A stretch of DNA of 64,000 bases, taken from positions 1 to 64,000 of the forward strand of contig NZ_JAGTAS010000055.1 in assembly GCF_025685425.1 (NCBI RefSeq). Reading direction: 5' to 3'. This document shows, piece by piece, positions 17,552 through 54,092 of the stretch (the first letter of the stretch is position 1; each line of letters starts with the position of its first letter). The DNA comes from Terriglobus albidus. Its GTDB lineage: Bacteria > Acidobacteriota > Terriglobia > Terriglobales > Acidobacteriaceae. The notes beneath the pieces were generated by a model, which ran no database searches, was not told where the DNA came from, and saw only the letters and a list, made by a program, of their open reading frames with translations. The position numbers were made by a program, and so were the translations under genes.

Positions 17552-17669
17552 TTAGAGCAATTCTCCTAAAGGTGTAGAGCAGAGTCTTAGCAGTTCGCGC
17601 CGTTTTCCTTCGAAGAAAACGGCATTCACCGATTTGTCCAACACTACAGTATTAGGAGAATTGCTCTAG
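17552..17669. repeat. TAGAGCA-type inverted-repeat element, copy B
   Basis: This is the same design as the element between grpE and dnaJ. TTAGAGCAATTCTCCTAA lies on the left and ATTAGGAGAATTGCTCTAG on the right, enclosing a GCCGTTTTC/GAAAACGGC hairpin, about 118 bp in all. Its right-hand CTAG supplies the TAG stop codon of the thioesterase gene. Confidence 0.9.
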
Positions 17670-18187
17670 AGATACCAGCCGGTTTCAAGACTTTTGCGGA
17701 CGCGCTTCTTTCGCTCGGTTTCGCCACTGCGCGCCTCGCGCCGCTTCAGTGCATCCTCATAGCGGCGTTTCTGATGCTCCGTCTCAGGAAGGATGCAGTC
17801 CACCGCGACCGGATTGCCCTTCTCATCCACGGCCACATAGGTGAGATACGCCGAGGAGACATGGCGCAGCTCGCCACTCTTCGGATCTTCCACCATCGCC
17901 TTCACCCCAACCTCCATGGAGGTGCGGAAGGCACGATTAACGCTCGCCTTCAGAATCAGCACCTCGCCCACGTGAACCGGTGCGACGAAATCGAGCGAGT
18001 CCATACTGGCGGTAACAACCGTTGTCGCTCGCGCGTGCCGGTAGGCGGCAACTGCGCCTACCAGATCGATAAACTGCATCAAACGTCCGCCGAAGAGGTT
18101 GCCGAGCCCATTTGCGTCGGCGGGAAAGATTACTTCGCTGCGCTCGGCCTGACTCTCGACGACCGTACGCTGTCGCTTCTCTTGCAT
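17666..18187 (-). CDS. Hotdog-fold acyl-CoA thioesterase
   Basis: This 173-aa protein of the YciA/acyl-CoA thioester hydrolase type hydrolyses acyl-CoA to free acid and CoA in the cytosol. Visible family features are the active-site region ANGLGNLFGGRLMQFIDLVGAVAAYRHA (about 25-52), TASMDSLDFVAPVHVGEVL, and AYLTYVAVDEKGNPVAV at the end of the hotdog sheet. The C-terminal 35 residues are Arg/Lys/Glu-rich. The TAG stop codon overlaps the terminal repeat of the adjacent element. The chain length specificity cannot be told from sequence. Confidence 0.9.
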   Translation of the reverse strand: MQEKRQRTVVESQAERSEVIFPADANGLGNLFGGRLMQFIDLVGAVAAYRHARATTVVTASMDSLDFVAPVHVGEVLILKASVNRAFRTSMEVGVKAMVEDPKSGELRHVSSAYLTYVAVDEKGNPVAVDCILPETEHQKRRYEDALKRREARSGETERKKRVRKSLETGWYL

Positions 18188-18245
18188 ACCAATAGTTTAC
18201 CGCCGTAGCCGTTTCGTTTGTCTTTGACCCAGTGCGCCAGGAACC

Positions 18246-18290
18246 TGTCATCAAATTGCTGACGGGCAGGAGCTTGATGACACGCTCTAG
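18246..18290. repeat. Short palindrome with TAGAGCGTGTCATC end
   Basis: TGTCATCAA (18,246-18,254) and TTGATGACA (18,274-18,282) form a perfect 9-bp inverted repeat. The right arm continues into the complement of CTAGAGCGTGTCATC. A one-base variant of this end, AGGGCGTGTCATC, is found at 10,941 and 31,248. Confidence 0.6.
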
Positions 18291-18307
18291 CTCGCTAAAC
18301 TATCGGT

Positions 18308-18616
18308 ATGGACAAGATTGCCGCACTGACCGAGATTCTCACCCAGGACCCCGCTAACCCCTTTGCCCGCTATGGACTCGCCATGGAGCACCTGGGCAAG
18401 GGTGATACGGAGACTGCCCTCCGTGAATTTCAGACATTGCGCGAGCATCAGCCGGACTATGTTCCCGGACATCAGATGGCGGCACAGACATTGATCAAGC
18501 TGGGCCGCTACAGCGAAGCGCGTGAGCGGTTGGAAGCCGGCCTGGCGGCAGCGGAGAAGACCGGCAATGGACATGCGCTTTCAGAGCTCTCCGGTTTGTT
18601 GGCCGATCTTCCCTAA
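18308..18616 (+). CDS. Small TPR-repeat protein
   Basis: This 102-aa protein consists of about two and a half tetratricopeptide repeats. Motifs fit the TPR pattern at PANPFARYGLAMEHLGKGD (about 16-34), FQTLREHQPDYVPGHQMAAQTLIKLGRYSEA (about 41-71) and a final helix pair. There is no signal peptide, so it is likely a cytosolic protein-interaction module. It precedes the MgtC-like gene by 54 bp in the same direction, but nothing links them functionally. Confidence 0.85.
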   Translation: MDKIAALTEILTQDPANPFARYGLAMEHLGKGDTETALREFQTLREHQPDYVPGHQMAAQTLIKLGRYSEARERLEAGLAAAEKTGNGHALSELSGLLADLP

Positions 18617-18670
18617 GACATAGTTACTACGGCGCTTTCGTCTATCGCGAACAGCAAAACCTCCGGTAGC

Positions 18671-19402
18671 ATGGTGGCCATGCTTGCTGCCCAACTGCCT
18701 GTAATGTCTCCTGTGGTGACGTGGACGGATGTCGCGTTGCGCCTGGGACTGGCTGCTCTGGCTTCCGCTGGAATCGGTTTCAATCGCGATGAGCGCTCGC
18801 ACCCCGCAGGCCTTCGCACCATCATGCTGGTCTGCCTTGCGGCCACTCTCGCCGCGATGCAGGCGAATCTGGTACTGCCGACGGTGGGCAAGGCGCTCAA
18901 CTCCTTTGTCCAGATTGATCCGATGCGATTGCCGCTGGGCGTGTTGACCGGCATCGGCTTCATCGGCGCTGGCGCAATTGTCCGCCGCGATAACTTCATC
19001 ACCGGTCTCACGACTGCAGCCACCATCTGGATCGTCACGATCCTTGGCATCCTGTTCGGCCTCGGTCAGCTCGTCCTGGCGAGCATCGGTTCTGTCCTGG
19101 CGCTCATCATCCTTTGGCTGCTGCGGTACATCGATGACGTACTTCCACGAAAGCGCCGCGGGACCTTAGCGGTATCGATGACGTACACGCCCACCATCGA
19201 GACCGAAGTGATGTTCCTGCTGGCCTCAACAGGATTCGTCGCTGACCGCTGGCATGTGACGCACGATGAGGTCAACGGAATCACAACGTTGCAATGCGAC
19301 GTCACCTGGAAGACCAGGGGAGGACACCAGCCGCATACGCCACGGCCGTTCACGGAACTGCGTGCTCTTCCGGGGATTCGAACCTTCTCCTGGGAAGAGT
19401 AA
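18671..19402 (+). CDS. MgtC/SapB family membrane protein
   Basis: The 243-aa protein has an N-terminal hydrophobic domain with about four or five transmembrane helices (residues 12-150). It carries the MgtC signatures GFNRDERSHPAGLRTIMLV near 32-51 and TGIGFIGAGAIVR near 95-108. The C-terminal ACT-like cytosolic domain (about 165-243) matches long MgtC/SapB members. Family members relate to growth in low magnesium and to modulation of a P-type ATPase or ATP synthase; no Mg transporter is adjacent here. The start may be the ATG at 18,671 or 18,680. Confidence 0.9.
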   Translation: MVAMLAAQLPVMSPVVTWTDVALRLGLAALASAGIGFNRDERSHPAGLRTIMLVCLAATLAAMQANLVLPTVGKALNSFVQIDPMRLPLGVLTGIGFIGAGAIVRRDNFITGLTTAATIWIVTILGILFGLGQLVLASIGSVLALIILWLLRYIDDVLPRKRRGTLAVSMTYTPTIETEVMFLLASTGFVADRWHVTHDEVNGITTLQCDVTWKTRGGHQPHTPRPFTELRALPGIRTFSWEE

Positions 19403-19436
19403 GACTGCTCCGATGCAGGAAGCCTATACTTAAGGC

Positions 19437-20969
19437 ATGCCGGTACCGACGAATCTGCCCCTGACCCTTGGAGCTTTGAAGAAGAGCGAATGGACTGCGG
19501 AACGCGTAAACCGCTCCGTCAAGGACGAGCTGCGCGAAAATCTGATCGCGCGTCTGCGCTCCCGGGAGACCATCTTTCCCGGCATCGTCGGGTATGAGGA
19601 CACCGTCGTTCCGCAGATTGTGAATGCCGTGTTGTCGCGGCATAACTTTATCCTTCTCGGTCTGCGCGGCCAGGCCAAGAGCCGTATCCTGCGCGCGCTG
19701 ACCGGCCTGCTGGATCCAGTCATCCCCTATGTCGCCGGCTCAGAGCTGCGCGACAATCCGTATAAGCCGCTGAGCAAGTTCTCGCGCGACCTGATCGCGG
19801 AACAGGGTGACGAGACGGCCATCGCCTGGCTCACACCCGACGAACGCTATGTTGAGAAGCTGGCGACTCCTGATGTCACCGTAGCCGATCTGGTTGGCGA
19901 CCTCGATCCCATCAAAGCAGCACGCGGCGGGCAGGAGCTCTCTTCCGAACTGACCATGCACTACGGTCTTCTTCCTCGCGCCAATCGCGGCCTGTTCATC
20001 ATCAATGAGCTACCTGACCTTGCCGGAAAGATCCAGGTGGCGCTTTTCAACATCATGCAGGAGGGCGACGTGCAGATTAAGGGCTATCCTGTCCGTCTGC
20101 AGTTGGATGTCGCCATTGCCTTCTCCGCCAATCCCGAGGACTATACCGCGCGCGGCAAAATTGTGACGCCGCTCAAGGACCGCATCGGCTCAGAGATCCG
20201 TACGCACTATCCCGAGTCGCTGGAAGAGGCCATCACGATCACCACACAGGAGGCTTGGGCTGCCCGCCCCAACGCCGAGATCGAGATTCCGCAGTACGTC
20301 CGCGAAGTCGTTGAGCTGATCGCCTTCCTTGCCCGTGAGGACAAGAAGGTGGACAAGCGCTCCGGCGTTTCACAGCGCCTGCCAATCTCGACGATGGAGC
20401 TTGTTCTGTCGAACGCCGAGCGACGTGCGCTGATGCATGATGAGACTCTGGCTGTGCCTCGGATCGGCGATATCTACACGGCGATGCCGGGCATCACCGG
20501 CAAGATCGAGCTGGAGTACGAAGGCGAGATGCGCGGCGCTGACGTGATTGTCCACGACATCATTCGCCAGGCGGTACAGCGCAGCTTCGATAAGTACTTC
20601 GCCGGCATCAACACGCAGCAGATTGAGGAGTGGTTCAACCTCGGCGGCACTGTTCAGTTGAACGATCAGCAGCCCGCATCCGCATCGCTGAAAGAACTGA
20701 AGCAGATTCAAGGGCTGATGGACAAGCTGGAGCCACTGGGTATCACCTCGAAGTCTTCTCCGGAGCTCGCTGTCTCGGCGGCGGAGTTTCTGCTGGAAGG
20801 TATGACGGCACACCGCCGCATCAGCCGGAGCGAAGAACGCAGCTTCTCTGCCGGAGAGAAGGCGCGTCGCACTGAGCAGGCTGCCAACTTCCATGAGACC
20901 GTACGCGAACGTGAGAAAGAACGCGCCGAGTGGGAAGCTAAGAACCGGACGCGGCGCGGCTTCAACTAG
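19437..20969 (+). CDS. MoxR/Mg-chelatase-like AAA+ ATPase
   Basis: This 510-aa AAA+ ATPase belongs to the family that pairs with von Willebrand A proteins. Walker A is GLRGQAKSR near residue 79. The Walker B segment reads FIINELPDL near 187-195, with Asn where Asp is usual. Sensor and arginine-finger regions follow (AFSANPEDYTARGK, LKDRIGSEIRTHYP). The C-terminal third is helical with a charged tail. Two genes downstream, on the same strand, is a VWA protein that is its likely partner in a chelatase-like remodelling complex. The target is unknown. Confidence 0.85.
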   Translation: MPVPTNLPLTLGALKKSEWTAERVNRSVKDELRENLIARLRSRETIFPGIVGYEDTVVPQIVNAVLSRHNFILLGLRGQAKSRILRALTGLLDPVIPYVAGSELRDNPYKPLSKFSRDLIAEQGDETAIAWLTPDERYVEKLATPDVTVADLVGDLDPIKAARGGQELSSELTMHYGLLPRANRGLFIINELPDLAGKIQVALFNIMQEGDVQIKGYPVRLQLDVAIAFSANPEDYTARGKIVTPLKDRIGSEIRTHYPESLEEAITITTQEAWAARPNAEIEIPQYVREVVELIAFLAREDKKVDKRSGVSQRLPISTMELVLSNAERRALMHDETLAVPRIGDIYTAMPGITGKIELEYEGEMRGADVIVHDIIRQAVQRSFDKYFAGINTQQIEEWFNLGGTVQLNDQQPASASLKELKQIQGLMDKLEPLGITSKSSPELAVSAAEFLLEGMTAHRRISRSEERSFSAGEKARRTEQAANFHETVREREKERAEWEAKNRTRRGFN

Positions 20970-20973
20970 TTAG

Positions 20974-21189
20974 ATGGAATTCAACGGGAAAGACGATTAT
21001 CTCGCACGTTGGATTCACGGGATCTCAGCTATCGTTCTGGGGCTTGCCGGTGTGATTCTGCTCCGTTTCTTCGGGAATGAAGATCGTTTTAGTTCACGCC
21101 TCAATGTGGCCGGCTTTTTCGCTCTTCTCCTTGCGATGCGGTGTGCGTGGTACGCCATCTCTGGAAGAGGCAACCCTAATAACGATTAG
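20974..21189 (+). CDS. Small two-helix membrane protein (71 aa)
   Basis: The product has two predicted transmembrane helices, ISAIVLGLAGVILLRFF (about 17-33) and NVAGFFALLLAMRCAWYAIS (about 44-63), with short polar ends. I recognise no family. It starts 4 bp after the AAA+ gene stop, which strongly suggests co-transcription and possibly translational coupling, so it may belong to the same system. Confidence 0.65.
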   Translation: MEFNGKDDYLARWIHGISAIVLGLAGVILLRFFGNEDRFSSRLNVAGFFALLLAMRCAWYAISGRGNPNND

Positions 21190-21273
21190 GGCCTGGTGCG
21201 CGGGGGAAAAGTAATTTCGAATTTCAAAATTACTCTTTCTTATAGGACCTTTCACTCCACTACATTCGCGCTT

Positions 21274-21960
21274 ATGGTTCAGGTCATGAACATCAGTGCC
21301 ACGCAGCTTGTCTTCGATACGACCGCCGCCACCTACGACCAGGACCGTGCAAAGCTGATTCCTCCGCACGATGACTTCTACGGCTGGGCCATCCGCCTGA
21401 TTCCGCCGGCAGCGAAAACCATCATCGATCTCGGAGCCGGTACAGGAATCCTGACCGCACTCATCCGGCAGCACTTTCCTGACGCACAGATTCATCTCGT
21501 CGATCTCTCGCCATCGATGCTCGATATCGCCCGCGTACGTCTCGCGCACGACAGCCGCATCCACTTCCATCAGCTCGACTACACCAGCGATTCCCTCCCC
21601 GGTGATGCCTGCGCCGTCGTCTCTGCTCTTTCGATCCATCACTCAACCGATGAAGCCAAACAGCAGGTCTTCCGCGCCGCCTTCAACGCATTGAAACCGC
21701 GTGGTGTCTTCATCAACGCCGATCAGGTGGCCGGGCCGACGCCTTCTGTCACCGATCGCTACCATGAGCTCTGGTTGCGCCAGGTACGGATGATCGGAGC
21801 TACCGAAGAGCAGATCAAAGCGAGTCTCTACCGTATGACTGACGACAAGTGTTCTCCGGTTGAAGAGCAGCTCCGCTGGATGCGCGAGGCAGGTTTTGCT
21901 GACGCCGACTGCTGGTACAAGGAAGCCCGCTTTGCGGTGATGGCAGGTACGCGTTTTTAG
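21274..21960 (+). CDS. Class I SAM-dependent methyltransferase
   Basis: This 228-aa Rossmann-fold methyltransferase has motif I IDLGAGTGILT (about residues 50-60), motif II LVDLSPSMLDIA, and the post-motif segment DACAVVSALSIHHSTDEAKQ. This pattern resembles small-molecule or tRNA-type methyltransferases of the UbiE/trans-aconitate class. The acceptor cannot be predicted. Two starts are possible, ATG 21,274 and ATG 21,286; neither has a clear ribosome-binding site. It lies between the AAA+ and VWA genes on the same strand. Confidence 0.85.
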   Translation: MVQVMNISATQLVFDTTAATYDQDRAKLIPPHDDFYGWAIRLIPPAAKTIIDLGAGTGILTALIRQHFPDAQIHLVDLSPSMLDIARVRLAHDSRIHFHQLDYTSDSLPGDACAVVSALSIHHSTDEAKQQVFRAAFNALKPRGVFINADQVAGPTPSVTDRYHELWLRQVRMIGATEEQIKASLYRMTDDKCSPVEEQLRWMREAGFADADCWYKEARFAVMAGTRF

Positions 21961-21997
21961 GGCATTGGATTGATCTGAGCGGTCAAAGGATGACTGA

Positions 21998-22190
21998 AAT
22001 TTGGTGGGAGCAGCGGGCTTCAGCCCGCTGATAAAGGCGTAAAAGTAAATGGGCTTTTAGCCGTGGGCCTTTTTTCTATTAGACAGAGAAGGCCCAGGGC
22101 TAAAGCCCATTTCTATTGAAGCGATAGACCGAGGGCTGGAAGCCCTCGGCTCCCACCCGTTCGAGCTCCGCTGGAATAGTTCACCTCAGC
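21998..22190. repeat. Composite palindromic intergenic repeat, copy 3
   Basis: This block matches the one at 4741-4985 module by module: GGTGGGAGCAGCG, GCGGGCTTCAGCCCGCTGATAAAGGC, a GGCCCAGGGCT/AAGCCCAT block, GCGATAGACCG, and then CGAGGGCTGGAAGCCCTCGG. It occupies the gap between the methyltransferase and VWA genes. No gene is seen. Confidence 0.8.
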
Positions 22191-22294
22191 AACCAGGTCT
22201 TTGTCGGGGACCCTGAGTTGCAATGGATGGAGCACGCAGAGTACGCGATCCAAGCTGTCAGCGCGCCCCAGAGGCGTATCATCGAAGCAGGCCG

Positions 22295-23536
22295 ATGAAG
22301 ACGACGCGCTACAAGAAGTACGAAGGCGACCTGGCCAGCGAGCTTGGCCTTGAAGAGCTGATGGAAGCGCTCGGCGATTTTCTGCTCGACTCCGGCTTCC
22401 AGAATCCTTACGCCGATTTCAGCGAGATGAACCTGGACCAGACGCTCGACGATCTGCGCGAGGCCATCCGCCAGGTGCTGGAGAATGGCGACTTCCTCGA
22501 CGAGCAGACACAGCAGCAGTACGACGAGATGTCTGCCGAGCAGCAGGAGAGCCTGGTCGACCGCCTGGTCGAGCGCATGCAGAACGAGAATATGATCCGC
22601 ACGGATGCGGAGACCTCGGACAGGACGCAGCAGTCCACCGCGCCAGGCGAAGTCGGACGCAACGAGTCGCAGGTCCGCTTCGAGGTCACCGACAAGTCGA
22701 TGGACTTTCTCGGGTACAAAGCGCTGCGCGATCTGCTTGGCTCTATGGGGCGGGCTAACTTCGGGCGTCATGACACGATCCAGGAAGCATCCGGTGTCGA
22801 AGCCAGCGGATCGTCCAAGCCTTACGAATTTGGCGACACACTCAATCTCGATGTCACCGCCACGTTGAAGTCCGCGATTGAACGCGAAGGACTGAACATG
22901 CCACTGAACATTGAGTACAGCGATCTGTACGTGCATCAATCAGAGTTCCAGGCTTCCTGCGATACGGTAGTAATGCTCGACTGCTCGCACTCGATGATCC
23001 TCTATGGAGAAGACCGCTTTACACCGGCGAAGCGGGTAGCGATGGCGCTTTCGCATCTGACGCGTACGCAGTTTCCCGGTGACTCGCTGCATCTGGTGCT
23101 CTTTCACGATTCGGCTGAGGAGATTCCCATCTCGCAGCTTGGCCGCGTGAAGGTCGGCCCCTGGTATACGAACACGCGCGAGGGCTTCAAGGTCGCCCGC
23201 CGTATTCTTTCCCGCTCCAACAAGCAGATGAAGCAGATCGTGATGATCACGGACGGTAAGCCATCGGCACTGACCTTGCCCGACGGGCGTATCTATAAAA
23301 ATGCCTTCGGCCTCGATCCGCTTGTGGTCTCTGAAACGCTGGAAGAGGTGGGGCGGTGTAAGAGGTCTGGCATTCAGATCAATACCTTCATGCTCACCAA
23401 CGACTTTGCCCTGGTGCAGTTTGTGCAGAAGGTGACGGCCATGTGCCGTGGGAAGGCTTACTTCACTACACCGCAGACGCTGGGGAATTATCTGCTAATG
23501 GATTTTATGCAGCGGCGGATGAGGACTGTGCACTAG
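22295..23536 (+). CDS. Von Willebrand factor A domain protein
   Basis: The 413-aa protein has a Gln/Glu-rich helical N-terminal half and a C-terminal VWA domain (about 220-410). The metal-ion-dependent adhesion site is seen as DCSHSM (DxSxS), a threonine-containing segment THLTR-like near residue 255, and [10 protein letters not shown]. Intracellular VWA proteins of this type work with MoxR/chelatase AAA+ ATPases such as the one at 19,437. The ATG at 22,295 gives [12 protein letters not shown]. An upstream in-frame extension to 22,223 lies in repetitive DNA and is rejected. Two strong hairpins follow the stop. Confidence 0.88.
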
Positions 23537-23565
23537 AAACAGGCCGACGTTTCATGGGTTCCTAG

Positions 23566-23643
23566 CCCACCCTCGCGTTGCGAGGGTGGGGCACCCAGGC
23601 AGGTAAAGATATAACCAAAGCCCCTCGTAACGAGGGGCTTTGG
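23566..23643. terminator. Two consecutive terminator-like hairpins
   Basis: CCCACCCTCGC/GCGAGGGTGGG with a 3-nt loop (23,566-23,590) and CCAAAGCCCCTCG/CGAGGGGCTTTGG with a 3-nt loop (23,615-23,643) are both perfect. They separate the convergent VWA and cytochrome genes and probably terminate both. Confidence 0.75.
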
Positions 23644-23663
23644 CTTTCTGCAATCTCTTCTGA

Positions 23664-24263
23664 TTAGAAGTCGATGATGTCTTTCTTGTCGTCGATCTTT
23701 TTGGCGTCCACATCCGGAACTTTCTTTAGATCGTCGATTGTTTTGAAGTCGCCGTTCTTGGTGCGGTAGTCCACGATGGCGGCCGCTTCCTTGTCGGTCA
23801 GGCTGAGAGCCTTGGCCAGGTCGGCGGCAGTCGCCTTATTTGCATTGACGTGTGCCGTCGCTGCAGCTCCTCCGGTACCGGGAGCGGGGAAGTTCTTGGA
23901 AACGTAGTCGAGGATGGCGGCGAAATCCTCATCACTGGCAGTGGCTCCCATGTCCACCATCTTGGCGATGGTTGCTTCCCAACCTTCGCGGTTCTGCGGG
24001 CGGCTCAGAATGTTGTTGGGCGAGTGGCAACGGCTGCACACACGCAGCGTCACATCGCGTCCCGGACCAGCGGGGAACTCAGGATGCTCATCCTGCTGAT
24101 AAGCGGACATGACGGCTGCCGGCGGATCGGCCGGCTTCGGCTCGGCGGTGACCGAAATGGCCACCAGACACAACGCAACCCCAATACCTGCAGCTGTGAA
24201 CTTCAGATACACCGGATTCAGCTTGCTTGTGAGCCGATTCCATTTCGTGTGTAAAGCGCTCAT
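23664..24263 (-). CDS. Cytochrome c fused to helix-hairpin-helix domain
   Basis: This 199-aa exported protein has an N-terminal hydrophobic segment (about residues 20-40) ending before AEPKPAD. A monohaem cytochrome c domain follows with CSRCH (CxxCH) near residue 78-82 and a possible distal Met in KMVDMGA. The C-terminal segment (about 138-199) has a ComEA-like helix-hairpin-helix pattern: VNANKATAADLAKAL, then TDKEAAAIVDYRTKNGDFKTIDDLKKV. The fold is expected to bind DNA or a protein in the periplasm. The ATG at 24,263 has GGAAGG 8 nt upstream and is preferred to a GTG three codons before. Confidence 0.87.
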   Translation of the reverse strand: MSALHTKWNRLTSKLNPVYLKFTAAGIGVALCLVAISVTAEPKPADPPAAVMSAYQQDEHPEFPAGPGRDVTLRVCSRCHSPNNILSRPQNREGWEATIAKMVDMGATASDEDFAAILDYVSKNFPAPGTGGAAATAHVNANKATAADLAKALSLTDKEAAAIVDYRTKNGDFKTIDDLKKVPDVDAKKIDDKKDIIDF

Positions 24264-24380
24264 TTCCCTCACCTTCCCATTGGTAGACCCTGCCGGGATT
24301 TTAACATTCTGACTTCTCCCCGGGCCACATGGTGAGCGGAGCGGGGAAGGTTCGGCCGGTATTCGCCCGTGACCTTGCGT

Positions 24381-24399
24381 CGACTCTCATATAGAGTCG
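24381..24399. promoter_or_regulatory. Palindrome upstream of lacI-type gene
   Basis: CGACTCT-catat-AGAGTCG is a perfect 7-bp inverted repeat 66 bp before the LacI regulator start. Its size and place fit an autoregulatory operator, but it lacks the central CG dyad usual for LacI-family sites. Confidence 0.4.
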
Positions 24400-24464
24400 C
24401 ATGTAGAGTTGGTTGATGTATCTGGACGCATAGCCAACGATCTAAAGGAATTGTTTTCCGGCCC

Positions 24465-25532
24465 ATGGCACCGAATCAGAAAGAACTCGCGAAGCTCGCC
24501 GGCGTCTCCGCCGGTACGGTTTCAAATGTTATTAGCGGATCTGCAAAGGTAAGCGAACGCTCGCGGCAGAAGGTGCTGGAAGCGATCCGCGTCCTAAACT
24601 ATCGGCCCAACCTGATCGCACGGAGTCTGAAAACCAATCGCACCTACACGCTGGGCATCGTGATCCCCGACATTACGATTCCCTTCTTCCCTAAGATCGT
24701 GCGAGGCGCAGAGGCTGCGGCGCGTGAGCGTGGATACTTCCTCATCGTGCTTGACTCCGAAGGAAGCCCGGAGCGCGAGGCCGACATGCTGGCGCTGCTG
24801 CGCGCACAGCGAGCAGAAGGCATTCTGCTGGTCACCGCGCAATCGCGCGACGCCGCCGAGACCGAAGATCCGCAAAGCGTCGCCGGTTCACCGATCGTCT
24901 GCGTCGACCGCGTGCCGGTTGACCTGGAGGTCGACTCGGTCTGCGTCGATGACGCCGGCGCCTCTGAGATGGCCACGGCCCATTTGATCGAGAACGGCCA
25001 TACCCGCATCGCCATTATCACCGGTCCGCTCTCACTGCAGAATGAGCGGGAACGTCTTCGCGGGTATCGCAATGCGTTGACCCGCGCGGGCCTGCCGGTG
25101 GATGACTCACTGATCTGGAATGGAGCGTTTGGCCAGGAGGTCGTCTCCGGTCTGTGTCAGCGTGGCTTTCGCACCGGCGACAACAAACCAACGGCACTGC
25201 TGGCTACCAATGGCGTTACCGGTATGGCCGCACTCCGCAGCCTTTACTCGCTCGGCCTGCGCACGCCGCGAGACTTCGCATTTGTGACCTTTGACCAGGT
25301 TAACGCTGAGGCCCTCTTCAAGCCCGGTATCTCTACCGTGGTACAACCCACCTACGAGATGGGTCACCGGGCAGTGGAAGTTTTGCTGCGGCGGATTGAA
25401 GGTGGCGAGCAGTCGCCGCCCCCCATCACCCGTGTACAGCTTCCGGCGGAGCTGGTTGTGCGCGAGTCCTCTTCAGGACGGCTGAAAGACGAACCCGTAA
25501 AGAGCGAGACAAAGAAGCACGCGAAGGAATAA
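24465..25532 (+). CDS. LacI-family transcriptional regulator
   Basis: This 355-aa repressor has the N-terminal LacI helix-turn-helix (KELAKLAGVSAGTVSNVISGS, about 6-26) and hinge region NYRPNLIARSLKTNRTY. A periplasmic-binding-protein-like effector domain (about 60-335) shows LGIVIPDI, VDRVPVDL and FAFVTFDQV. It should bind DNA as a dimer and release it or bind it when a sugar or sugar phosphate is present. It lies 21 bp upstream of a sugar ABC transporter operon on the same strand and is the likely regulator of that operon. The Lys-rich C-terminal tail of about 20 residues is extra. Confidence 0.95.
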   Translation: MAPNQKELAKLAGVSAGTVSNVISGSAKVSERSRQKVLEAIRVLNYRPNLIARSLKTNRTYTLGIVIPDITIPFFPKIVRGAEAAARERGYFLIVLDSEGSPEREADMLALLRAQRAEGILLVTAQSRDAAETEDPQSVAGSPIVCVDRVPVDLEVDSVCVDDAGASEMATAHLIENGHTRIAIITGPLSLQNERERLRGYRNALTRAGLPVDDSLIWNGAFGQEVVSGLCQRGFRTGDNKPTALLATNGVTGMAALRSLYSLGLRTPRDFAFVTFDQVNAEALFKPGISTVVQPTYEMGHRAVEVLLRRIEGGEQSPPPITRVQLPAELVVRESSSGRLKDEPVKSETKKHAKE

Positions 25533-25553
25533 GCTGGTGACCCAGTTTCCCGC

Positions 25554-29996: not shown

Positions 29997-30026
29997 AACA
30001 GCCCATACACCGGGTGCATGGGTCAC

Positions 30027-31085: not shown

Positions 31086-31133
31086 GTGCGTCCATCTCCC
31101 TTGGCCCATTCTAAAAACAAGTTGCGCGGTGGT

Positions 31134-31260
31134 TAGAGCATTTTCACTATTGCTGGGTGTCCCGGAAGAGGAGTGCAGCGGCGTTTTCATTGCGGAAAAC
31201 GCCCATAAATGCGGATCCTCTGGGTACACCCGCAGTGAAAATCCTCCAGGGCGTGTCATC
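31134..31260. repeat. TAGAGCA-type element, copy C (diverged)
   Basis: TTAGAGCATTTTCACT lies at the left and AGTGAAAATCCTCCAGG at the right, enclosing a GGCGTTTTC/GAAAACGCC hairpin and shared blocks such as GTCCCGGAAG. The left half matches the copies near 53,860. The right end is degenerate and abuts AGGGCGTGTCATC (31,248-31,260). It lies in the gap upstream of the epimerase gene. Confidence 0.8.
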
Positions 31261-31359
31261 GCCCTCACCCACCGCGCAAGCGTAAACCATCAGTCGGGGT
31301 TACGGAAGCTTCTTGATGTAAATGTTGCGATGAAGGATTCGCAGAGTTCCGGATATCCC

Positions 31360-32511: not shown

Positions 32512-32534
32512 GTCTTACTCCCACGTCCCTTCTT

Positions 32535-33578
<1,044 letters not shown>

Positions 33579-33590
33579 AACACGCTCCGG

Positions 33591-34811: not shown

Positions 34812-34985
34812 GTGACGTCTTCCTTCTTCTGTTGCGGAGAACTGGCTGCCCCACCGATGACAGGCAGAAACCAGCGAATCCGGTTGTTTGAGGACGCCAA
34901 CACTATAACGCCCACCCGGCCTTGCCCGGCACTGCGGGGAAACGCAGCGTATAAGGGCATTTGGGCAGAGTATTGAGCAGCATCG

Positions 34986-36999: not shown

Positions 37000-37007
37000 T
37001 CAGAATC

Positions 37008-38072: not shown

Positions 38073-38076
38073 GCCT

Positions 38077-39424: not shown

Positions 39425-39588
39425 AGGAATGCACTCATTATGAAGGACGACGGAGATAACAATCCATCTCCTCCTCATTGAAAAACTTTCCGAAAACACT
39501 GAACAAAGGGTCTTCGTCCGGAATATATCCATGCAGAAACATAAAAATTCAGAGTTATCGCCGGGTCACCCGCCCGGCCCAAGGTGTC

Positions 39589-42339: not shown

Positions 42340-42352
42340 CTGTACTGTTGCT

Positions 42353-43690: not shown

Positions 43691-43725
43691 GGTCATCTCC
43701 GGATGACCGCATTCTACCTTCCGGT

Positions 43726-46618: not shown

Positions 46619-46636
46619 GATGCCTTCTGCAAGTTG

Positions 46637-46670
46637 AAGGGCCGCAGGACAGTATGTACCCGCGGCCCTT
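46637..46670 (-). terminator. Terminator-like hairpin after receptor gene
   Basis: A 9-bp perfect stem AAGGGCCGC/GCGGCCCTT with a 16-nt loop lies between the receptor stop (46,682) and the ArgH-like start (46,618). No T-run follows, so read-through is possible. Confidence 0.5.
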
Positions 46671-46681
46671 GTGATGGATAG

Positions 46682-49570
46682 TTAGAAACGAATCGCAGCG
46701 CCCCACTGGACGATACGCTGTTCCAGAACGCTGGTGCGGGTCGTTGTGGTGGCGCCATTCGCAACACCGGTGGAGGTATTAACCGGCTGCGTGATAGCAA
46801 GCGTGCTTACGTTGTTCGTATTCAGGATGTTGTTCGCCTCCAGAAGGAAGGTCGGCGCGAAACGATCCTTGATCTTCGGGAAGGTGCGCGTGTAGCGGGC
46901 ATCGATCTGGGTGATCGAAGGTCCGCGAGCCGAATTCCGGCCAACGAAGGCAGGACGGGCCACGCCGCTGGTTGCAGCATCGCCGTAGAAGGTCGTGTTG
47001 CTTGCCAGGATGTTCGCCTGATCTCCGGAGGAGATGTTGCCGAGAATTGCGAGCATGTTGTGGTTCGCAATCTCACGGCCCACACGGTTGCTGACGTTGA
47101 ACTGTGGTTCGAGTACGGCGGACATATTGAACGCATTCGGCCGGTTTACCGAGGAATTGCCGCGATCAAACTTTCGGTTCAGCGTGTTCGAGACCCCAAG
47201 GTTCTGCTCAAAGGTGTTGACCTCCGGGGCATCGGAAATAACATGCGACCAGGTATAGCTGGCATTGAACTGCATACCGCGCATCGGCGACATCGTCACG
47301 TTGGTAAACATCGCATTAAAGCTCGAATTCGCTCCGGACTCGACGCGGTTTACCTGATCAAAGCGCGGATCGTATCGGGTCGACGAGTTTACCGCCGCGC
47401 TGAAGACCGGGCGGCCATCAGCCAGCGTTGCTCCCGTTGGGATGACGTTGATATTGTGCATCCACGGTAGATTGCGACCGTTCGACATAATGTAGCCAAT
47501 CGTCGCCGAGATGTGATTTGTGAGCTGCTGGGTCACCTGTGCGTTGATGTTCCAGGTGTACTCATTCTTGATATTCGGATTGATGGTCGTCACATTCTGC
47601 GTGGCGCCTGCACCCGAAGCAGGAACAGTGGGAAAAGCGGGGCGTCCCGGAGTACCGCTGGCTCCTCCAATATAGGTAAAGGAAGAGGTACGGTTCGAGC
47701 CGTCCAGGTTCAAGGCATTGAACCACAGGTTAGTTGGGGTCTGTTGGTAAAAGATTCCGGCGGAAACCTTCACCGTCGTCGTGTCGGTTGCACGATAGCT
47801 GAAGCCCAGGCGCGGGGCGAAGTTGGTGCTGGGGACATTGAACTTACGCGAATTCGGATAGAGTGCATTGGCATTCGCCTGGGGTGAAGAGAAGCGATCG
47901 TAACGAATGCCATATACCGCCGTCAGGCGAGGCGAAAGCTGCCACGTGTCCTGCGCGTATCCGCCATAGAAGAGCGAGGTATAGCCGATACCATTCACAT
48001 CCGTCTGGGAGGCATAGTTAGCGTAGCCGTAGGGATCGGTGCCATTCTTTGCATTCAGGTAGGCCTGGACGGTAGCGAAAGTGTAGCGGTTAAACGAGAC
48101 CAAACGCTGGCGGTTCTGCAACTGCGAGAGCACAAAGCCGGCCTTGATCGTATGCGGTCCACGAACATAACTGATGTTCTCAGAGCCGGAGGGCTGTTTG
48201 TCGTTGTACTGATCTCCGCCGCTGCTGGTTCCATTGAAGGCGGCGACGTTAGTGATCACGATCGCCGGTCCTTTCCCTGTGCTGGGTCCTGCGAAATGGG
48301 TATTGGAACGGAACGGCACCGAGAAGCGGAACTCATTCACCAGGCTGTTCGAGATCGTGGAGATCCACTGAAGCCCGAAGACATGCGCACGGTCTTTGAA
48401 GTCCACGTTGGCGCTGGTCGCGTTAATACCGCCGACCTGCGTATTGAACGGAAACGAGTTCCGGAAATAGTTGTAGCGCAGGAAGATGGAGTTCTTCGCG
48501 TCGATGTTGTAATCCGCACGAACATCTGTAAAGGTGCCATGCAACAGACCAGGAGCGGGTACAAGCTCTGATGCCGCCAGACCAATCGCCGCGGCATTTG
48601 CAGCCGTGATGGTAACCGGGGCAGGGCTGCCCCGCAGGACATGCTCGTACGATCCAAAGAAGAAGAGCTTATCTTTCTTGACTGGCCCGCCGACGTTAAA
48701 GGAGTGGTCCTCAAGAATCAGATTCGGCTTCGTCGGGCTCGTTACCTTGTTCTGCAGCAGCGGATAGGCCGTAGCATCCACCCAACGTTTGATAAATTGA
48801 TAGGTCCCGTGAAAGTCGTTTGTTCCGGAGTTTGAGATGACGTTGTAGACGTCGCCAGTCGTCCATCCATACTCGGGCGCGAAGGAGTTCGATACCGTCT
48901 GCACTTCCTTCACGAAGATATTGCCGATGGGGAAGAGGCGAAGACCAGTACGATCCGCCTCGGTGTTCACCATGCCGTCCATCTGGTAGTTGATACGGTC
49001 CATCAAGCCATTGGTGTTCAGCGTACGAGGAATACCAAGCTCCGGATTCGGATGACCTGATACGCCAGGCTGGAAGACGATGAAGTTATACGGATTGCGC
49101 GAGGTCAGCGGAACATTCTCAATCTCGGTCTGGGTGAGAGTACGCTGCACATTCAGATTGGTCGGATCGATCGAAGCAATGGAAGCCTCGACAGTAATGG
49201 CTGTATCGGCCGTGCCGACCTTCAGATCGCCGTCAATGACGGCTTCCGTACCGGCATTCAGGTTCACGCCCGATACTTTCAGAGGGGAGAACCCCGTTGA
49301 TGTGATATTGACGGTGTATTCACCCAGTGGCAAATTGACCAGCACATAATAGCCATCGTTGCCAGTAGTAACGGTGCGCGTAAATCCTACGGAAGCATTC
49401 GTTACGGTGACTGCCGCCCCCGCGACAGCTGCACCGCTCGGATCCGCGACACGGCCGCGGATCGTTCCATTGATGGATTGCGATTGTCCATATGCCGCGG
49501 GTCCTGTGAGAGCAACAGGCCCAAGCATGGCAAACGCTAGTAGAACTGATCGAACACGATGAGTTCTCAT
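46682..49570 (-). CDS. Oar-type TonB-dependent receptor
   Basis: This 962-aa outer-membrane protein carries a signal peptide (about 1-27). A carboxypeptidase-regulatory-like domain follows (about 31-115, GTIRGRVADPSGAAVAGAAVTVTN), then a plug-like region near 130-280 and a long barrel that ends in ...QWGAAIRF with a C-terminal Phe. Acidobacteria encode many such Oar-like proteins, thought to take up oligosaccharides or other large solutes. The ATG at 49,570 has GGGAGG 8-10 nt upstream. It lies upstream of the ArgH-like and permease genes on the same strand, so the three may be one transcription unit. Confidence 0.9.
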   Translation of the reverse strand: MRTHRVRSVLLAFAMLGPVALTGPAAYGQSQSINGTIRGRVADPSGAAVAGAAVTVTNASVGFTRTVTTGNDGYYVLVNLPLGEYTVNITSTGFSPLKVSGVNLNAGTEAVIDGDLKVGTADTAITVEASIASIDPTNLNVQRTLTQTEIENVPLTSRNPYNFIVFQPGVSGHPNPELGIPRTLNTNGLMDRINYQMDGMVNTEADRTGLRLFPIGNIFVKEVQTVSNSFAPEYGWTTGDVYNVISNSGTNDFHGTYQFIKRWVDATAYPLLQNKVTSPTKPNLILEDHSFNVGGPVKKDKLFFFGSYEHVLRGSPAPVTITAANAAAIGLAASELVPAPGLLHGTFTDVRADYNIDAKNSIFLRYNYFRNSFPFNTQVGGINATSANVDFKDRAHVFGLQWISTISNSLVNEFRFSVPFRSNTHFAGPSTGKGPAIVITNVAAFNGTSSGGDQYNDKQPSGSENISYVRGPHTIKAGFVLSQLQNRQRLVSFNRYTFATVQAYLNAKNGTDPYGYANYASQTDVNGIGYTSLFYGGYAQDTWQLSPRLTAVYGIRYDRFSSPQANANALYPNSRKFNVPSTNFAPRLGFSYRATDTTTVKVSAGIFYQQTPTNLWFNALNLDGSNRTSSFTYIGGASGTPGRPAFPTVPASGAGATQNVTTINPNIKNEYTWNINAQVTQQLTNHISATIGYIMSNGRNLPWMHNINVIPTGATLADGRPVFSAAVNSSTRYDPRFDQVNRVESGANSSFNAMFTNVTMSPMRGMQFNASYTWSHVISDAPEVNTFEQNLGVSNTLNRKFDRGNSSVNRPNAFNMSAVLEPQFNVSNRVGREIANHNMLAILGNISSGDQANILASNTTFYGDAATSGVARPAFVGRNSARGPSITQIDARYTRTFPKIKDRFAPTFLLEANNILNTNNVSTLAITQPVNTSTGVANGATTTTRTSVLEQRIVQWGAAIRF

Positions 49571-49676
49571 AGTTTTGACCTCCCCATTCAGCAACTGACC
49601 TTGAAATTTGAATCACGTCCCCGGATGGCCTGCCGCGACTACTCCAGCGCGACCTCCGTTACTGCTACCCCATCGT

Positions 49677-50891
49677 TCAACCCAGCAGCTTGCTGTCCAT
49701 AGCCTGAAGCGACAGGGCCACGGAACCATAGAGCTGGGCCTCGGGCCCAAGCACGCTACATCGAACCCGCGGATGCGGGAAGTCGCTCTCCGCGAGAACA
49801 CCACCCACGGCTTCACATAACGCCAGGTGCGATCCAATGCCCCCGCCCATGACTACCAGCGATGGGTTGAAGAGCAATGTGATGGTCGCAATGGCGTCAG
49901 CCAGAATGCGCGCCGTGTTCTTCAGGACGGCCTTCGCCTGTACATCGCCGGAGGCCACTCGATCAAAGATTTGCGAAGCACGCAAGGCACGAAGCTCGGC
50001 GTTATCGCGGGTTGCACGGTCCAGTTCCTCTCGCCATTGGGCTTCAATACCGGCGCCACCGATCACGCGCTCCAGTTGGCCAGTACGGTGCATCTCCAGA
50101 GGTTCGCGCGGCATTCCAGGAACACCGAGATAACCGATTTCGCCGGCGCTCCACGCGGAACCATGATGGATTTGCCCTCCAAGAAAAATACCCGCGCCGA
50201 CACCAGTCCCCATGGCGATAAACACAAAATCATCAACGTTCTCGGCTGCGCCGTGCCAGTGCTCCCCCACCGCAGCGAGATTCGTGTCATTCTCTGCAAT
50301 CACCTCAAACCCAAGCTGGTCTTCCAGCAGCGCACGCAACTGAACCTCGTCCCATCCGGTCAGGTTCGGGGCGGACAGAACCACGCCGCGCGCTACATCG
50401 GTCACGCCAGGCGCACCCACCGTTAGATGCTGCACCTTTTTGACAGAGACCTTTGCGTCTGCACACATCTGCGTCAGCCCGCCACGAAGCAGATGGCAGA
50501 TCGAGACCGGATCCTTCTCCCTTGTACCCAGCTTGCATGCCCACTGCGCCACCGGCCTGCCATCCAGGTCGGCGAGCATCATGCGCAAGCGTGTTCCTCC
50601 AATATCGGCGCCGGCGACATAGGCATGTTCCGGACGGAAGCGCAGCAACTCCGCCGGGCGCCCACCGGAAGAGATTCCCTCTCCCAGATACTCGATCAGC
50701 TCCAACGCTTCCAGATCTGCAATCGCGGCAGTGACGGTCGGAGCAGATAGCCCTGACATTCGTACGAGATCCGCACGCGAGCAGGGGGAGTTTTCCCGCA
50801 CCAGTTGAAGAAGGGCCCGATTGTTCGCACGGCGCAGATTTGCCGGACGAGAGATACGCGGCTCACGCGAATTGGCTAGCGTAGAGGACAT
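49677..50891 (-). CDS. ROK-family transcriptional repressor
   Basis: This 404-aa NagC/Mlc/XylR-type repressor has an N-terminal winged helix (RRANNRALLQLVRENSPCSRADLVRMSGLSAPTVTAAIADLEAL, about 19-62) and a C-terminal ROK sugar-kinase-like fold (ADIGGTRLRMML near 94-105, GTGVGAGIFLGGQIHHG near 223-239, SAGEIGY). The zinc-binding CxCGxxGCxE of typical ROK proteins is missing: the corresponding stretch reads GVPGMPREPLEMH and has no cysteine. It is divergent from the PIG-L gene, with a 12-bp palindrome in the shared 130-bp promoter region, and probably senses a sugar. Confidence 0.9.
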   Translation of the reverse strand: MSSTLANSREPRISRPANLRRANNRALLQLVRENSPCSRADLVRMSGLSAPTVTAAIADLEALELIEYLGEGISSGGRPAELLRFRPEHAYVAGADIGGTRLRMMLADLDGRPVAQWACKLGTREKDPVSICHLLRGGLTQMCADAKVSVKKVQHLTVGAPGVTDVARGVVLSAPNLTGWDEVQLRALLEDQLGFEVIAENDTNLAAVGEHWHGAAENVDDFVFIAMGTGVGAGIFLGGQIHHGSAWSAGEIGYLGVPGMPREPLEMHRTGQLERVIGGAGIEAQWREELDRATRDNAELRALRASQIFDRVASGDVQAKAVLKNTARILADAIATITLLFNPSLVVMGGGIGSHLALCEAVGGVLAESDFPHPRVRCSVLGPEAQLYGSVALSLQAMDSKLLG

Positions 50892-50918
50892 AGTCAGGTG
50901 TAGGCAGATTATAAACAA

Positions 50919-50930
50919 ACTTTACAAAGT
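50919..50930. promoter_or_regulatory. Palindrome ACTTTACAAAGT between divergent genes
   Basis: A perfect inverted repeat, ACTTT-AC-AAAGT, lies in the AT-rich gap between the ROK repressor and the PIG-L gene. Its place fits an autoregulatory operator. Confidence 0.4.
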
Positions 50931-51021
50931 AGCAAGTAGGGTGATATCTACAAGGACAATCCAACATCACTCATCGGCGGGCGCGGCCTCCTGTGTTCGT
51001 TCGCCGAGGAATGGCTCACAC

Positions 51022-53862
51022 ATGACGACGTGGAAGCACTGCATATCGTACTCCCTGGCCGTATGGCTTGCGTTCTCTCCAATGGCGGCTACGGCGCAGG
51101 CAGGTCCTCAGCCCCGCTATCTCTCTCCGGAGGCCTATCCACTTCCCCTGGACCGCGGCGCCTCCGGTTTGTGGCAATCGCTGCAAAAGCTGAAGACCCG
51201 CGCCAGCCTGATGATGGTTGTCGCCCATCCCGATGATGAAGACGGCGGCATGCTGGCTTATGAAAGCCGTGGGCAGGGCGCCGATACTACGCTGCTGACG
51301 CTCAATCGTGGTGAAGGCGGCCAGAATGTCATGACCGGCGATTACTGGGACCAGCTCGGCATTATGCGTACGCATGAGCTGCTCGCCGCAGGATCCTATT
51401 ATGGGGTACACCAGAACTGGACTCGCGTCGCCGACTATGGCTTTTCCAAAACGCTCGACGAAGCGCTGAAGAACTGGGGCCATGACCGTGTGCTCTACGA
51501 TGTCGTCCGGCAGGTGCGTATTAGCCGGCCGCTCGTCATCACCAGCGTCTTTGCCGGCAACGTCTCCGACGGACACGGACATCACCAGACCGCCGGCGTT
51601 ATGGCGCAAGAGGCCTACAAGCTCGCAGGGGACCCAAATATTTTTCCAGACCAGATCGCTGCCGGTCTGAAGCCATGGTCTCCCCTGAAGGTCTATGCCC
51701 GCGTTCCCTTCGCCCGCGTCACCAAGCAGGGTATCTTCGACTACGCTACCGGCAAGTGGGAGCCTGTGCGCTTCAAGAATTACGTCACCGGTTCGTGGAT
51801 TGAAGGAGTCCCCTCAAAGACCCTCGAAATCCCGGAAGGGGAGTACAACGCCCTCTTTGGGCGCAGCTATCTCGCGGTCGCTCGTGAGGGCCTGGCCAAC
51901 CAGAAGTCGCAGAACGACGGCGTCGGCATTCCGCTGCCCGCGCAGTTCAACTCGCCCTACCATCTCTATGCCTCGCGTGTGAACGGCGATACGTTGCCCG
52001 CTACGGAAAAGACCTTCTTCGACGGCATCGACATCTCGCTCGCCGGCATTGCCGACTACGCTCCCGCCACTGAGCGCGCACCCTGGCGCAAAGGTCTCGA
52101 AGAACTGCAGCAGATCGTCGGCGAAGCGACCGCGCAGTACAGCGCCGCAAATCCATCTCAATCTGCCGCTGCACTCGCTCGCGGCCTGGAGAAGACACGT
52201 TCTCTCCAGAACGAGATCAAACGCAGCAGCCTTCCTGCCGCGGCAAAGTATGACATGCTGCACGAGCTCTCCATCAAGGAAGATCAGTTCAACGATGCCC
52301 TGTCTCAGTCCCTCGGCGTCATGCTGGTCGCCAGCGTCAATCCGGTGGGCGAGAAACCGCGCATGGGCCCCTTCGGAGAACTACGCGGCAACACGCCGAC
52401 GTATCAGTTCGCCATCCCCGGGCAACCGGTCTCGATCAATGTCCATATTGCCAACCAGGGAACACAGAATGTCGCGATCGACGATCTTTCAGTCCTGGGT
52501 GACTCCGGTGACTGGAAGTGGTCTGCGCAAAGCAAACCCGCTGCGTCGATGAATGCCGGGCAGGCAGATGATCTAACAGTGGAGGGTGTCGTTCCAGACA
52601 ACGAGCCTATCACCAAGCCTTATTTCAGCCGGCCGACGCTGGAACAGTCCTACTACAACCTGGATAATCCGGCATATCTCGGACTGCCCACGATGCCCTA
52701 CCCCGTGACCGCGCGCCTGCAGTACAGCTTTCAAGGTGTGCAGGCAAGCGTGACCGGAACGGTACAGACAACACATCGTATCAATGGCATCGGTCCGGTT
52801 CCTGAGCCCTTGATGATCGCGCCGGCCATTTCGGTGCTGGTCTCTCCGGAGGCGGGCGTAATCCCTTCCAACAACGCAAAGCTTACCCTCAAGGTAACGT
52901 TGCGCAGCAACGTCAAAGGACCTGCCGAAGGAGAAGTTTCGCTGAAACTGCCCGAGGGCTGGACCTCATCGCCACGCTCCGCATCTTTTTCCACCGCGCG
53001 TGATGGCGATGAGAAGAATCTGTCCTTCGATGTCACCCCCAGGAACGTACAACTTAAGCCCTACACCATTACCACTGTCGCGAAGTATGCCGGCAAGGAG
53101 TACAAAGAAGGCTTCACCACGGTCACCTGGCCTGGTCTGCGGCCTTATCCTTCATACCGTCCGGCGACCTATCGTACGACGGGCGTGGATCTAAAGACGC
53201 CCGCCGACCTGAAGGTTGGCTACATCATGGGCACTGGCGAAGATGTACCTGCCTCGCTGAGCGATGCAGGTGTGCAGGTGACCCAGCTCTCCGCCGGTGA
53301 TCTCGCCTCTGCGAATCTGGACAAGTTCGATGCTGTGATCATCGGCATCCGAGCGTACGCCAACCGCCCTGACTTGCGAGCCAACAACAATCGCCTGCTG
53401 GAGTACGTCAAGAACGGCGGCACCGTGGTGGTGGAGTACCAGACCAACGAGTATGACCATAACTACGGCCCATACGCCATCTCTGTACCGGCTGACGCCG
53501 AGAAGGTTGTGGACGAAACCTCTACAGCAACCATCCTCGACTCGGCCGATCCGCTACTGAACTGGCCCAACAAGATCACCAGCGCAGACTTCAATAACTG
53601 GGTCGAAGAGCGCGGCCATGGCTTCGCACGCACCTGGGATCCGAAGTTCACGCCTCTGACTGAGATGCACGATGACGGACAGGACGCGCAAAAGGGTGGT
53701 CTGCTTTACGCCAAATACGGAAAGGGCCAGTACATCTACACCTCATTCGCCTTCTTCCGGCAGATTCCGGAGGGAGTCCCCGGCTCCTTCCGCATCTACA
53801 TGAACCTGATCAGCGCCTCCCGCAACCCGGCGTGGAACGCTTCTTTGACCGCTACGAAGTAG
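51022..53862 (+). CDS. Exported PIG-L deacetylase family protein
   Basis: This 946-aa protein starts with a signal peptide (about 1-27, ending ATAQA). The PIG-L/LmbE de-N-acetylase domain (about 60-250) has VVAHPDDEDGG near 67-77, RGEGGQN, and the second metal motif DGHGHHQTAGV. The middle part (about 450-720) is rich in beta sandwich segments. The C-terminal third (about 730-940) resembles a glutamine-amidotransferase-like fold (VGYIMGTGEDVPASL, DAVIIGIRAYANRPDL, VKNGGTVVVEYQ). It would remove acetyl groups from an amino sugar conjugate outside the cytoplasm. The ATG at 51,022 follows GAGGAATGG. Its TAG stop lies at the end of an inserted repeat element. Confidence 0.87.
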   Translation: MTTWKHCISYSLAVWLAFSPMAATAQAGPQPRYLSPEAYPLPLDRGASGLWQSLQKLKTRASLMMVVAHPDDEDGGMLAYESRGQGADTTLLTLNRGEGGQNVMTGDYWDQLGIMRTHELLAAGSYYGVHQNWTRVADYGFSKTLDEALKNWGHDRVLYDVVRQVRISRPLVITSVFAGNVSDGHGHHQTAGVMAQEAYKLAGDPNIFPDQIAAGLKPWSPLKVYARVPFARVTKQGIFDYATGKWEPVRFKNYVTGSWIEGVPSKTLEIPEGEYNALFGRSYLAVAREGLANQKSQNDGVGIPLPAQFNSPYHLYASRVNGDTLPATEKTFFDGIDISLAGIADYAPATERAPWRKGLEELQQIVGEATAQYSAANPSQSAAALARGLEKTRSLQNEIKRSSLPAAAKYDMLHELSIKEDQFNDALSQSLGVMLVASVNPVGEKPRMGPFGELRGNTPTYQFAIPGQPVSINVHIANQGTQNVAIDDLSVLGDSGDWKWSAQSKPAASMNAGQADDLTVEGVVPDNEPITKPYFSRPTLEQSYYNLDNPAYLGLPTMPYPVTARLQYSFQGVQASVTGTVQTTHRINGIGPVPEPLMIAPAISVLVSPEAGVIPSNNAKLTLKVTLRSNVKGPAEGEVSLKLPEGWTSSPRSASFSTARDGDEKNLSFDVTPRNVQLKPYTITTVAKYAGKEYKEGFTTVTWPGLRPYPSYRPATYRTTGVDLKTPADLKVGYIMGTGEDVPASLSDAGVQVTQLSAGDLASANLDKFDAVIIGIRAYANRPDLRANNNRLLEYVKNGGTVVVEYQTNEYDHNYGPYAISVPADAEKVVDETSTATILDSADPLLNWPNKITSADFNNWVEERGHGFARTWDPKFTPLTEMHDDGQDAQKGGLLYAKYGKGQYIYTSFAFFRQIPEGVPGSFRIYMNLISASRNPAWNASLTATK

Positions 53863-54092
53863 AGCATTTCCCCGGTTGCTAGGTATCCCGGAAGTGGAGT
53901 GCGACGGCGTTTTCATTGCGCAAAACGCCCATAGATGCGGAATCCCTACGCTACACCTACAGGGAAAATGCTTTAATCGCATTTTCCCTGTTGCTAGGTA
54001 TCCCGGAAGTGGAGTGCGACGGCGTTTTCATTGCGGAAAACGCCCATTAGATGCGGAATCCCTACGCTACATCTACAGGGAAAATGCTCTAG
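53860..54092. repeat. Tandem pair of TAGAGCA-type elements
   Basis: Two nearly identical copies lie head to tail, each about 115 bp: 53,860-53,975 and 53,976-54,092. Each has CGACGGCGTTTTCATTGCG then AAAACGCCCAT in the middle, a TATCCCGGAAGTGGAGTG block, and CAGGGAAAATGCT at the right. The first three bases of the left copy form the TAG stop of the PIG-L gene, and the right copy ends in TGCTCTAG. Confidence 0.92.

What the first reader, a model, noticed from the sequence alone, without database searches (positions are those of the whole stretch)
17660..53870. Element ends supply the stop codons of neighbouring genes
At three loci the outer TAG of the TAGAGCA end is the stop codon: grpE (14,716-14,718), thioesterase (17,666-17,668) and PIG-L (53,860-53,862). 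Either the elements insert at CTAG-like stops, or insertion replaced the original stop and reading ends in the repeat. The same pattern is seen where TAGGGCGTGTCATC begins with the HEAT-gene stop (10,940-10,942).
Basis: seen in the sequence. Interest (0 to 1): 0.75.

Follow-up and report, generated by a model that had tools for sequence, protein, structure and literature searches.

The report
Repeats that land in stop codons
In this soil bacterium a 116-base mobile repeat has often inserted inside gene stop codons, and because its own first base rebuilds the stop, the protein comes out unchanged, which may help explain how so many copies are tolerated.

Summary
Confirmed at three loci: the outer TAG of a 116-bp inverted-repeat element is the stop of grpE, a thioesterase gene and a PIG-L-like gene. 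The fourth example (HEAT gene, 10,940) is an ancestral stop, not an insertion.

It is far above chance. Of 102 gene 3' ends facing 103 sampled insertions, 43 have the stop exactly at the element boundary. In 42 of 43 the base beyond the far TA is A or G, the displaced third base of TAA/TAG. Seven stop insertions had an alignable empty relative; all seven relatives carry a stop at that codon. So the element enters between TA and the third base, and its own G rebuilds TAG. For grpE and the thioesterase the protein end is unchanged.

Target preference plus tolerance explains most of the excess; about two-fold over matched sites remains. The preference for YTA lies at one defined end (107 of 122), suggesting strand-specific insertion, as by a Y1/HUH enzyme. 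No helper was identified.

Stop-donating repeats are already in print (GTAG REPs, pneumococcal BOX). This is a new and unusually clear case with a simple mechanism.

The parts
14603..14718 (.). family A element between grpE and dnaJ
   Evidence: empty in G018, shared with G001
14716..14718 (-). stop codon TAG of grpE (ORF 14716-15267), third base supplied by the element
   Evidence: G018 has TAA at this codon and the same protein end
17553..17668 (.). family A element between the thioesterase gene and the Mrp/ApbC-like gene
   Evidence: empty in G001, G008, G010, G018
17666..17668 (-). stop codon TAG of the thioesterase gene (ORF 17666-18187)
   Evidence: TAA in the four empty relatives
53860..54091 (+). 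head-to-tail pair of family B elements (second copy begins at about 53976)
53860..53862 (+). stop codon TAG of the PIG-L-like gene (ORF 50821-53862)
   Evidence: base beyond the far TA is G; no alignable empty site
31134..31248 (.). family B copy with a decayed right end, not at a gene stop (right limit judged by eye)
10940..10942 (+). ordinary ancestral stop of the HEAT-repeat gene; not an element boundary

Best explanation
These are non-coding mobile repeats (MITE-like, 116 bp counting both outer TAs) that insert directly after YTA, which is TAA or TAG read on the other strand. Every TAA/TAG stop offers such a site. Both ends of the element begin GAGC, so an insertion between TA and the third base of a stop rebuilds TAG in frame in either orientation and moves the old third base (A or G) to the far side. 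The protein is unchanged and the downstream flank stays whole, so such insertions are kept while most others are lost. Shown here: exact position at stops, empty sites, far-side base, TAR rule, one-sided target preference. Inferred: tolerance (purifying selection elsewhere) as the main filter, and a strand-specific Y1/HUH-type helper transposase.
For: 43 of 102 facing 3' ends exactly at the boundary, every other offset within 40 bp at most 2; replicate 26 of 62. Far-side base A 23, G 19, T 1. 7 of 7 testable stop insertions have a stop at the same codon in an empty relative (the frames of L036, L062 and L112 read by eye). Third base of the end is G at 93% of 206 ends. 140 of 141 clean insertions have TAR on a side, whereas 27% of non-coding TA sites have none. 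Stop share 38/83, 23/46 and 5/10 against 9.4%, 10.5% and 7.2% expected. Stop triplet kept at 43 of 43 stop-facing ends against 139 of 163 other ends, p=0.0055. Base before the element's left TA is C/T in 107 of 122; among non-stop insertions left Y 57 of 66, right R 32 of 66, p=5e-6. Ten Y1_Tnp matches in the genome.
Against: Against context-matched TA sites in the 40 bp after stops an excess of about two-fold stays (36/292 vs 9/169, p=0.015; 25/352 vs 21/534, p=0.044); it is large in long tandem gaps and absent in short convergent gaps, so tolerance alone may not suffice. 15 of 122 copies have a purine at the left, and orientation at one-sided stop sites follows the rule in only 18 of 25. None of the ten Y1 genes is flanked by A/B ends; 2 of the 10 loci hold a family B copy within 1.5 kb, about what copy density predicts. 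The 43-of-43 comparison is partly circular, since a stop-facing end is defined by having a stop. The gene finder is home-made and the copies sampled are not random.
Confidence: 0.8

Rival explanations
1. Classical DDE (IS630/Tc1-like) MITE with a TA target-site duplication. The effect on stops is the same (TA|R is split and G rebuilds TAG); only the chemistry of insertion differs.
For: Near-perfect terminal inverted repeats, TA at both outer ends, single TA in empty sites. RUP is a published TA-target MITE linked to IS630 (PMC2229807, passages). Two DDE_3 matches in the genome.
Against: A symmetric pair of ends should prefer the same base on both sides; the preference is one-sided. The two DDE_3 matches are a 204-aa open frame and a 72-aa fragment, and no A/B ends were found beside them. 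All 13 groups of family B copies lying 3-7 bp apart are head-to-tail.
Confidence: 0.3
2. Insertion is not tolerated but favoured: the hairpin placed directly after the stop serves the host as a terminator or mRNA stabiliser.
For: The thioesterase element folds strongly as RNA (-52.1 kcal/mol, z -8.05); two-fold residual excess at stops.
Against: The PIG-L copy folds only modestly (-39.2, z -2.54). Insertions differ between close relatives: G001 lacks the purH element that G008 has, and lacks the thioesterase one. No expression data.
Confidence: 0.1
3. The element truncates or extends proteins: it lands in a late coding TA and donates a new stop.
For: At L112 the convergent left-hand gene reads into the element and ends at an internal TAG, four residues longer than in G001 (G001 frame read by eye). 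The PIG-L tail differs from G018.
Against: A split Tyr codon would leave C/T on the far side; 42 of 43 have A/G. 7 of 7 testable cases show a stop at the same codon in the relative.
Confidence: 0.04

Closest known systems
GTAG-tagged REPs with RAYT transposases, and TIRYT genes (PMC3733652; passages and section 16 read)
   Same: [quoted passage not shown] it describes TIR-flanked Y1 transposases in acidobacteria including G. mallensis.
   Different: REPs are 20-40 bp (abstract); these elements are 116 bp with ends GAGC, and no Y1 gene with A/B ends was found here.
Pneumococcal BOX repeats (PMC3049150, section 9 read)
   Same: In 36 genes the BOX encodes the stop codon, without strong evidence of truncation.
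   Different: Other sequence and host; in the passages and section read I saw no target-site explanation.
TA-target MITEs: RUP and ERIC/RU elements (PMC2229807, PMC2759123, passages)
   Same: Short, multi-copy, inverted ends with TA, TA at the target.
   Different: RU fusions are reported to abolish the stop and extend a protein; here the end rebuilds the stop. The target preference here is one-sided.
IS5 target choice (PMC5493358, passages)
   Same: Pyrimidine-TA-purine target, most often CTAG.
   Different: IS5 duplicates four bases; here at most TA is duplicated.

Membership tests
MITE (non-autonomous inverted-repeat element) | short, multi-copy, terminal inverted repeats | tested here: met
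   116 bp; 286 places for the family B left end against 0 for the reversed control; 111 exact end pairs against 2
MITE (non-autonomous inverted-repeat element) | target-site duplication | tested here: inconclusive
   single TA in empty sites, equally explained by an element that itself ends in TA
MITE (non-autonomous inverted-repeat element) | ends shared with an autonomous transposon in the genome | tested here: not met
   PF13358, PF01797 and PF13340 searches found no partner with these ends; other transposase families not searched
IS630/Tc1-type MITE | symmetric TA target | tested here: not met
   YTA preference at one end only, p=5e-6
REP/RAYT or IS200/IS605-type (Y1/HUH) element | insertion 3' of a short target on one strand (recalled) | tested here: met
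   Y before the left TA in 107 of 122, T enriched before that in family B, 46 of 107
REP/RAYT or IS200/IS605-type (Y1/HUH) element | Y1 transposase gene flanked by the same repeat | tested here: not met
   ten Y1 loci inspected; none is flanked by A/B ends; L211 is flanked by inverted TTATAGAGCGGG, sharing only TAGAGC
Pneumococcal BOX | boxA-boxB-boxC modules (recalled) | not tested
   compared by published description only

The most novel reading that the evidence does not exclude
A single-strand (HUH-type) transposition system whose target, YTA, is the antisense of TAA/TAG and whose element begins with the base that rebuilds TAG, so that stop codons are self-healing landing sites, with a further attraction to stops beyond local sequence.
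Probability: 0.2. Interest if true: 0.6.

Novelty: new member of a known kind. Interest (0 to 1): 0.45.

Why it matters
It offers a concrete, testable rule for how a repeat can reach hundreds of copies in a compact genome: the target rule and the terminal base together make stop codons harmless landing sites. In such genomes many stop codons are partly repeat-derived, and each insertion keeps a record of the old stop (TAA or TAG) on its far side.

Tried and rejected
HEAT stop (10,940): rejected as an insertion. Anchor searches with L065 and L007 flanks gave no synteny: the first matched only 144 bases in 2 of 4 genomes, the second hit another repeat; purH and murF proteins were used instead. 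Autonomous partner: PF13358 (2 matches), PF01797 (10) and PF13340 (0) searched in the own genome; a scan for distant inverted end pairs in fetched sequence gave 22 candidate pairs, some the same place counted twice, none convincing by eye. I first read the far-side A/G bias as a symmetric YTAR target with TA duplication; two searches showed it is one-sided, so that reading became a rival. In one search the purH print-out was taken at the wrong place (loci not re-oriented); one search replaced it. PIG-L: no alignable empty site, left open.

Rows dropped before counts: 163 element groups, of which 103 were kept as distinct and complete at both ends; the pooled set of 141 also required TA at both outer ends; orientation tests used the 122 single-copy ones; one search needed a called gene downstream, leaving 61 of 66 stop insertions. 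Own loci come from listings that were capped or ranked, so the sample is not random. Of the 64 records, 4 non-acidobacterial ones and Bryocella gave no insertion and were left out.

Full report
What is there. The window lies in a 6.1-Mb genome of 58 contigs. Two families of 116-bp inverted-repeat elements occur in it: A (TAGAGCAATTCTCC...), 44 matches, four of them second pieces of split copies, and B (TAGAGCATTTTCCCTG...), 286 places for 28 bases of its left end at up to 3 mismatches against 0 for the reversed control. Exact TAGAGCA-N92-122-TGCTCTA pairs number 111 against 2 for the control. I infer an acidobacterium close to Granulicella; the genome itself is unnamed and may have been left out of that scan.

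The loci of the finding. grpE, thioesterase and the PIG-L-like gene end on the TAG of an element. G001, G008 and G010 lack the thioesterase element and read CTC-TAA at that codon, G018 reads ATC-TAA, and the protein ends at the same residue. G018 lacks the grpE element, has TAA and the same protein end; G001 shares the element. For PIG-L the G018 orthologue has a longer, different tail and no alignable empty site. The HEAT stop at 10,940 is ancestral.

Counting. In 123 own-genome loci plus the window 163 element groups were found and 103 distinct insertions, complete at both ends, kept. Genes were called by codon usage trained on 21 long ORFs of the window. Of 206 ends 102 face a gene 3' end, 97 a 5' end, 5 none, 2 lie inside a gene. 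Of the 102, 43 have the stop exactly at the boundary; each other offset within 40 bp holds at most 2. In records from related organisms it is 26 of 62 (25 insertions, one at two convergent stops); in 360 contiguous kb of G001 5 of 13, in two further 20-kb G001 stretches 1 of 3 and 0 of 1. Among clean insertions with a TAR, outside genes or at stops, stops take 38 of 83 (own), 23 of 46 (related organisms) and 5 of 10 (G001), where 9.4%, 10.5% and 7.2% of such sites are stops (p=7e-18, 2e-11, 4e-4). With the site census of the element-free G018 stretch the share is 14.4% (p=7e-12). Own and related loci were fetched because they hold elements, so absolute rates are inflated and the tests are approximate.

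At the stop. In 42 of 43 cases the base beyond the far TA is A or G; in the related records 25 of 26 (counted). Seven stop insertions have an alignable empty relative (thioesterase, grpE, murF, purH, L036, L062, L112); all seven relatives carry a stop at that codon, TAA or TAG, though the second purH relative, G018, has TGA. The element's G, present at 93% of ends, completes the new TAG. Stop-facing ends keep a stop triplet in 43 of 43, other ends in 139 of 163 (p=0.0055), partly by definition.

Target. 140 of 141 clean insertions have TAR on a side; 27% of non-coding TA sites have none. Oriented by the element, the base before the left TA is C or T in 107 of 122 (family A 15 of 15, family B 92 of 107). 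In family B a T is favoured before that, and G/T, C, G after the right TA. Among non-stop insertions left Y is 57 of 66 and right R 32 of 66, p=5e-6. A one-sided target points to strand-specific insertion. All 13 groups of family B copies 3-7 bp apart are head-to-tail, which fits, because the right end itself offers CTA. One-sided stop sites follow the rule in 18 of 25, one-sided non-stop sites in 33 of 41; the exceptions may have used the other, near-identical end.

Why stops. Every TAA/TAG stop is a YTA on the other strand. Only 1 of 141 clean insertions lies inside a called gene, so coding insertions are avoided or purged. Against matched TA sites in the 40 bp after stops the excess is about two-fold (36/292 vs 9/169, p=0.015; 25/352 vs 21/534, p=0.044). 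It is nine-fold in long tandem gaps and absent in short convergent gaps (odds ratio 0.6). I favour target preference plus tolerance and leave room for a further attraction.

Helper. PF13358 gave 2 matches, PF01797 10, PF13340 none. No match was flanked by A/B ends. Two of the ten Y1 loci hold a family B copy within 1.5 kb, about what copy density predicts. One Y1 gene (L211) is flanked by inverted TTATAGAGCGGG, sharing TAGAGC with the elements; this is only a lead.

Literature. GTAG REP termini often provide the TAG of flanking ORFs (PMC3733652, passages and section 16). BOX repeats encode the stop of 36 genes without strong evidence of truncation (PMC3049150, section 9). IS5 prefers Py-TA-Pu (PMC5493358, passages). 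ERIC/RU elements have TA ends and TA duplication (PMC2759123, passages). In the listings of eight paper searches, and the passages opened from seven papers, I saw no account of this acidobacterial family or of a stop rebuilt by the element's first base. The library lacks most subscription journals.

Limits. Home-made gene calls, a non-random list of copies, draft relatives, no helper, and a TA duplication that the empty sites cannot tell from an element ending in TA.

Noticed in passing
window 53860-54091; L060, L061, L076, L077, L079, L081, L083, L085, L088, L090, L095, L115: Head-to-tail arrays of 2-4 family B copies with a near-constant junction GCTYTA-RTC-GCATTTT (ACC in L077), unlike the normal left end TAGAGCATTTT; how this junction arises is unexplained.
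   Followed up: partly
contigs C55 (near base 220,284) and C42 (near base 16,260): Family B arrays lie at contig ends, so they probably break the assembly.
   Followed up: no
L025, L040, L043; window 16584-16607: A short palindrome (CAGCGAA..TTCGCTG) sits inside some family A copies and also stands alone in the window: a nested small repeat.
   Followed up: no
window 18276-18289 and 31247-31260: GCGTGTCATC stands beside a TAGAGC end at 18,289 and directly after the decayed family B copy at 31,248; possibly a third repeat family. Near 18,230-18,290 the alignment to relatives breaks off.
   Followed up: partly
L112 1600-1625: Convergent genes: the element rebuilds the stop of one and extends the other by four residues to an internal TAG.
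   Followed up: yes
L211 1470-1953: Y1 transposase gene flanked by inverted TTATAGAGCGGGCC repeats, like the published acidobacterial TIRYT genes.
   Followed up: partly
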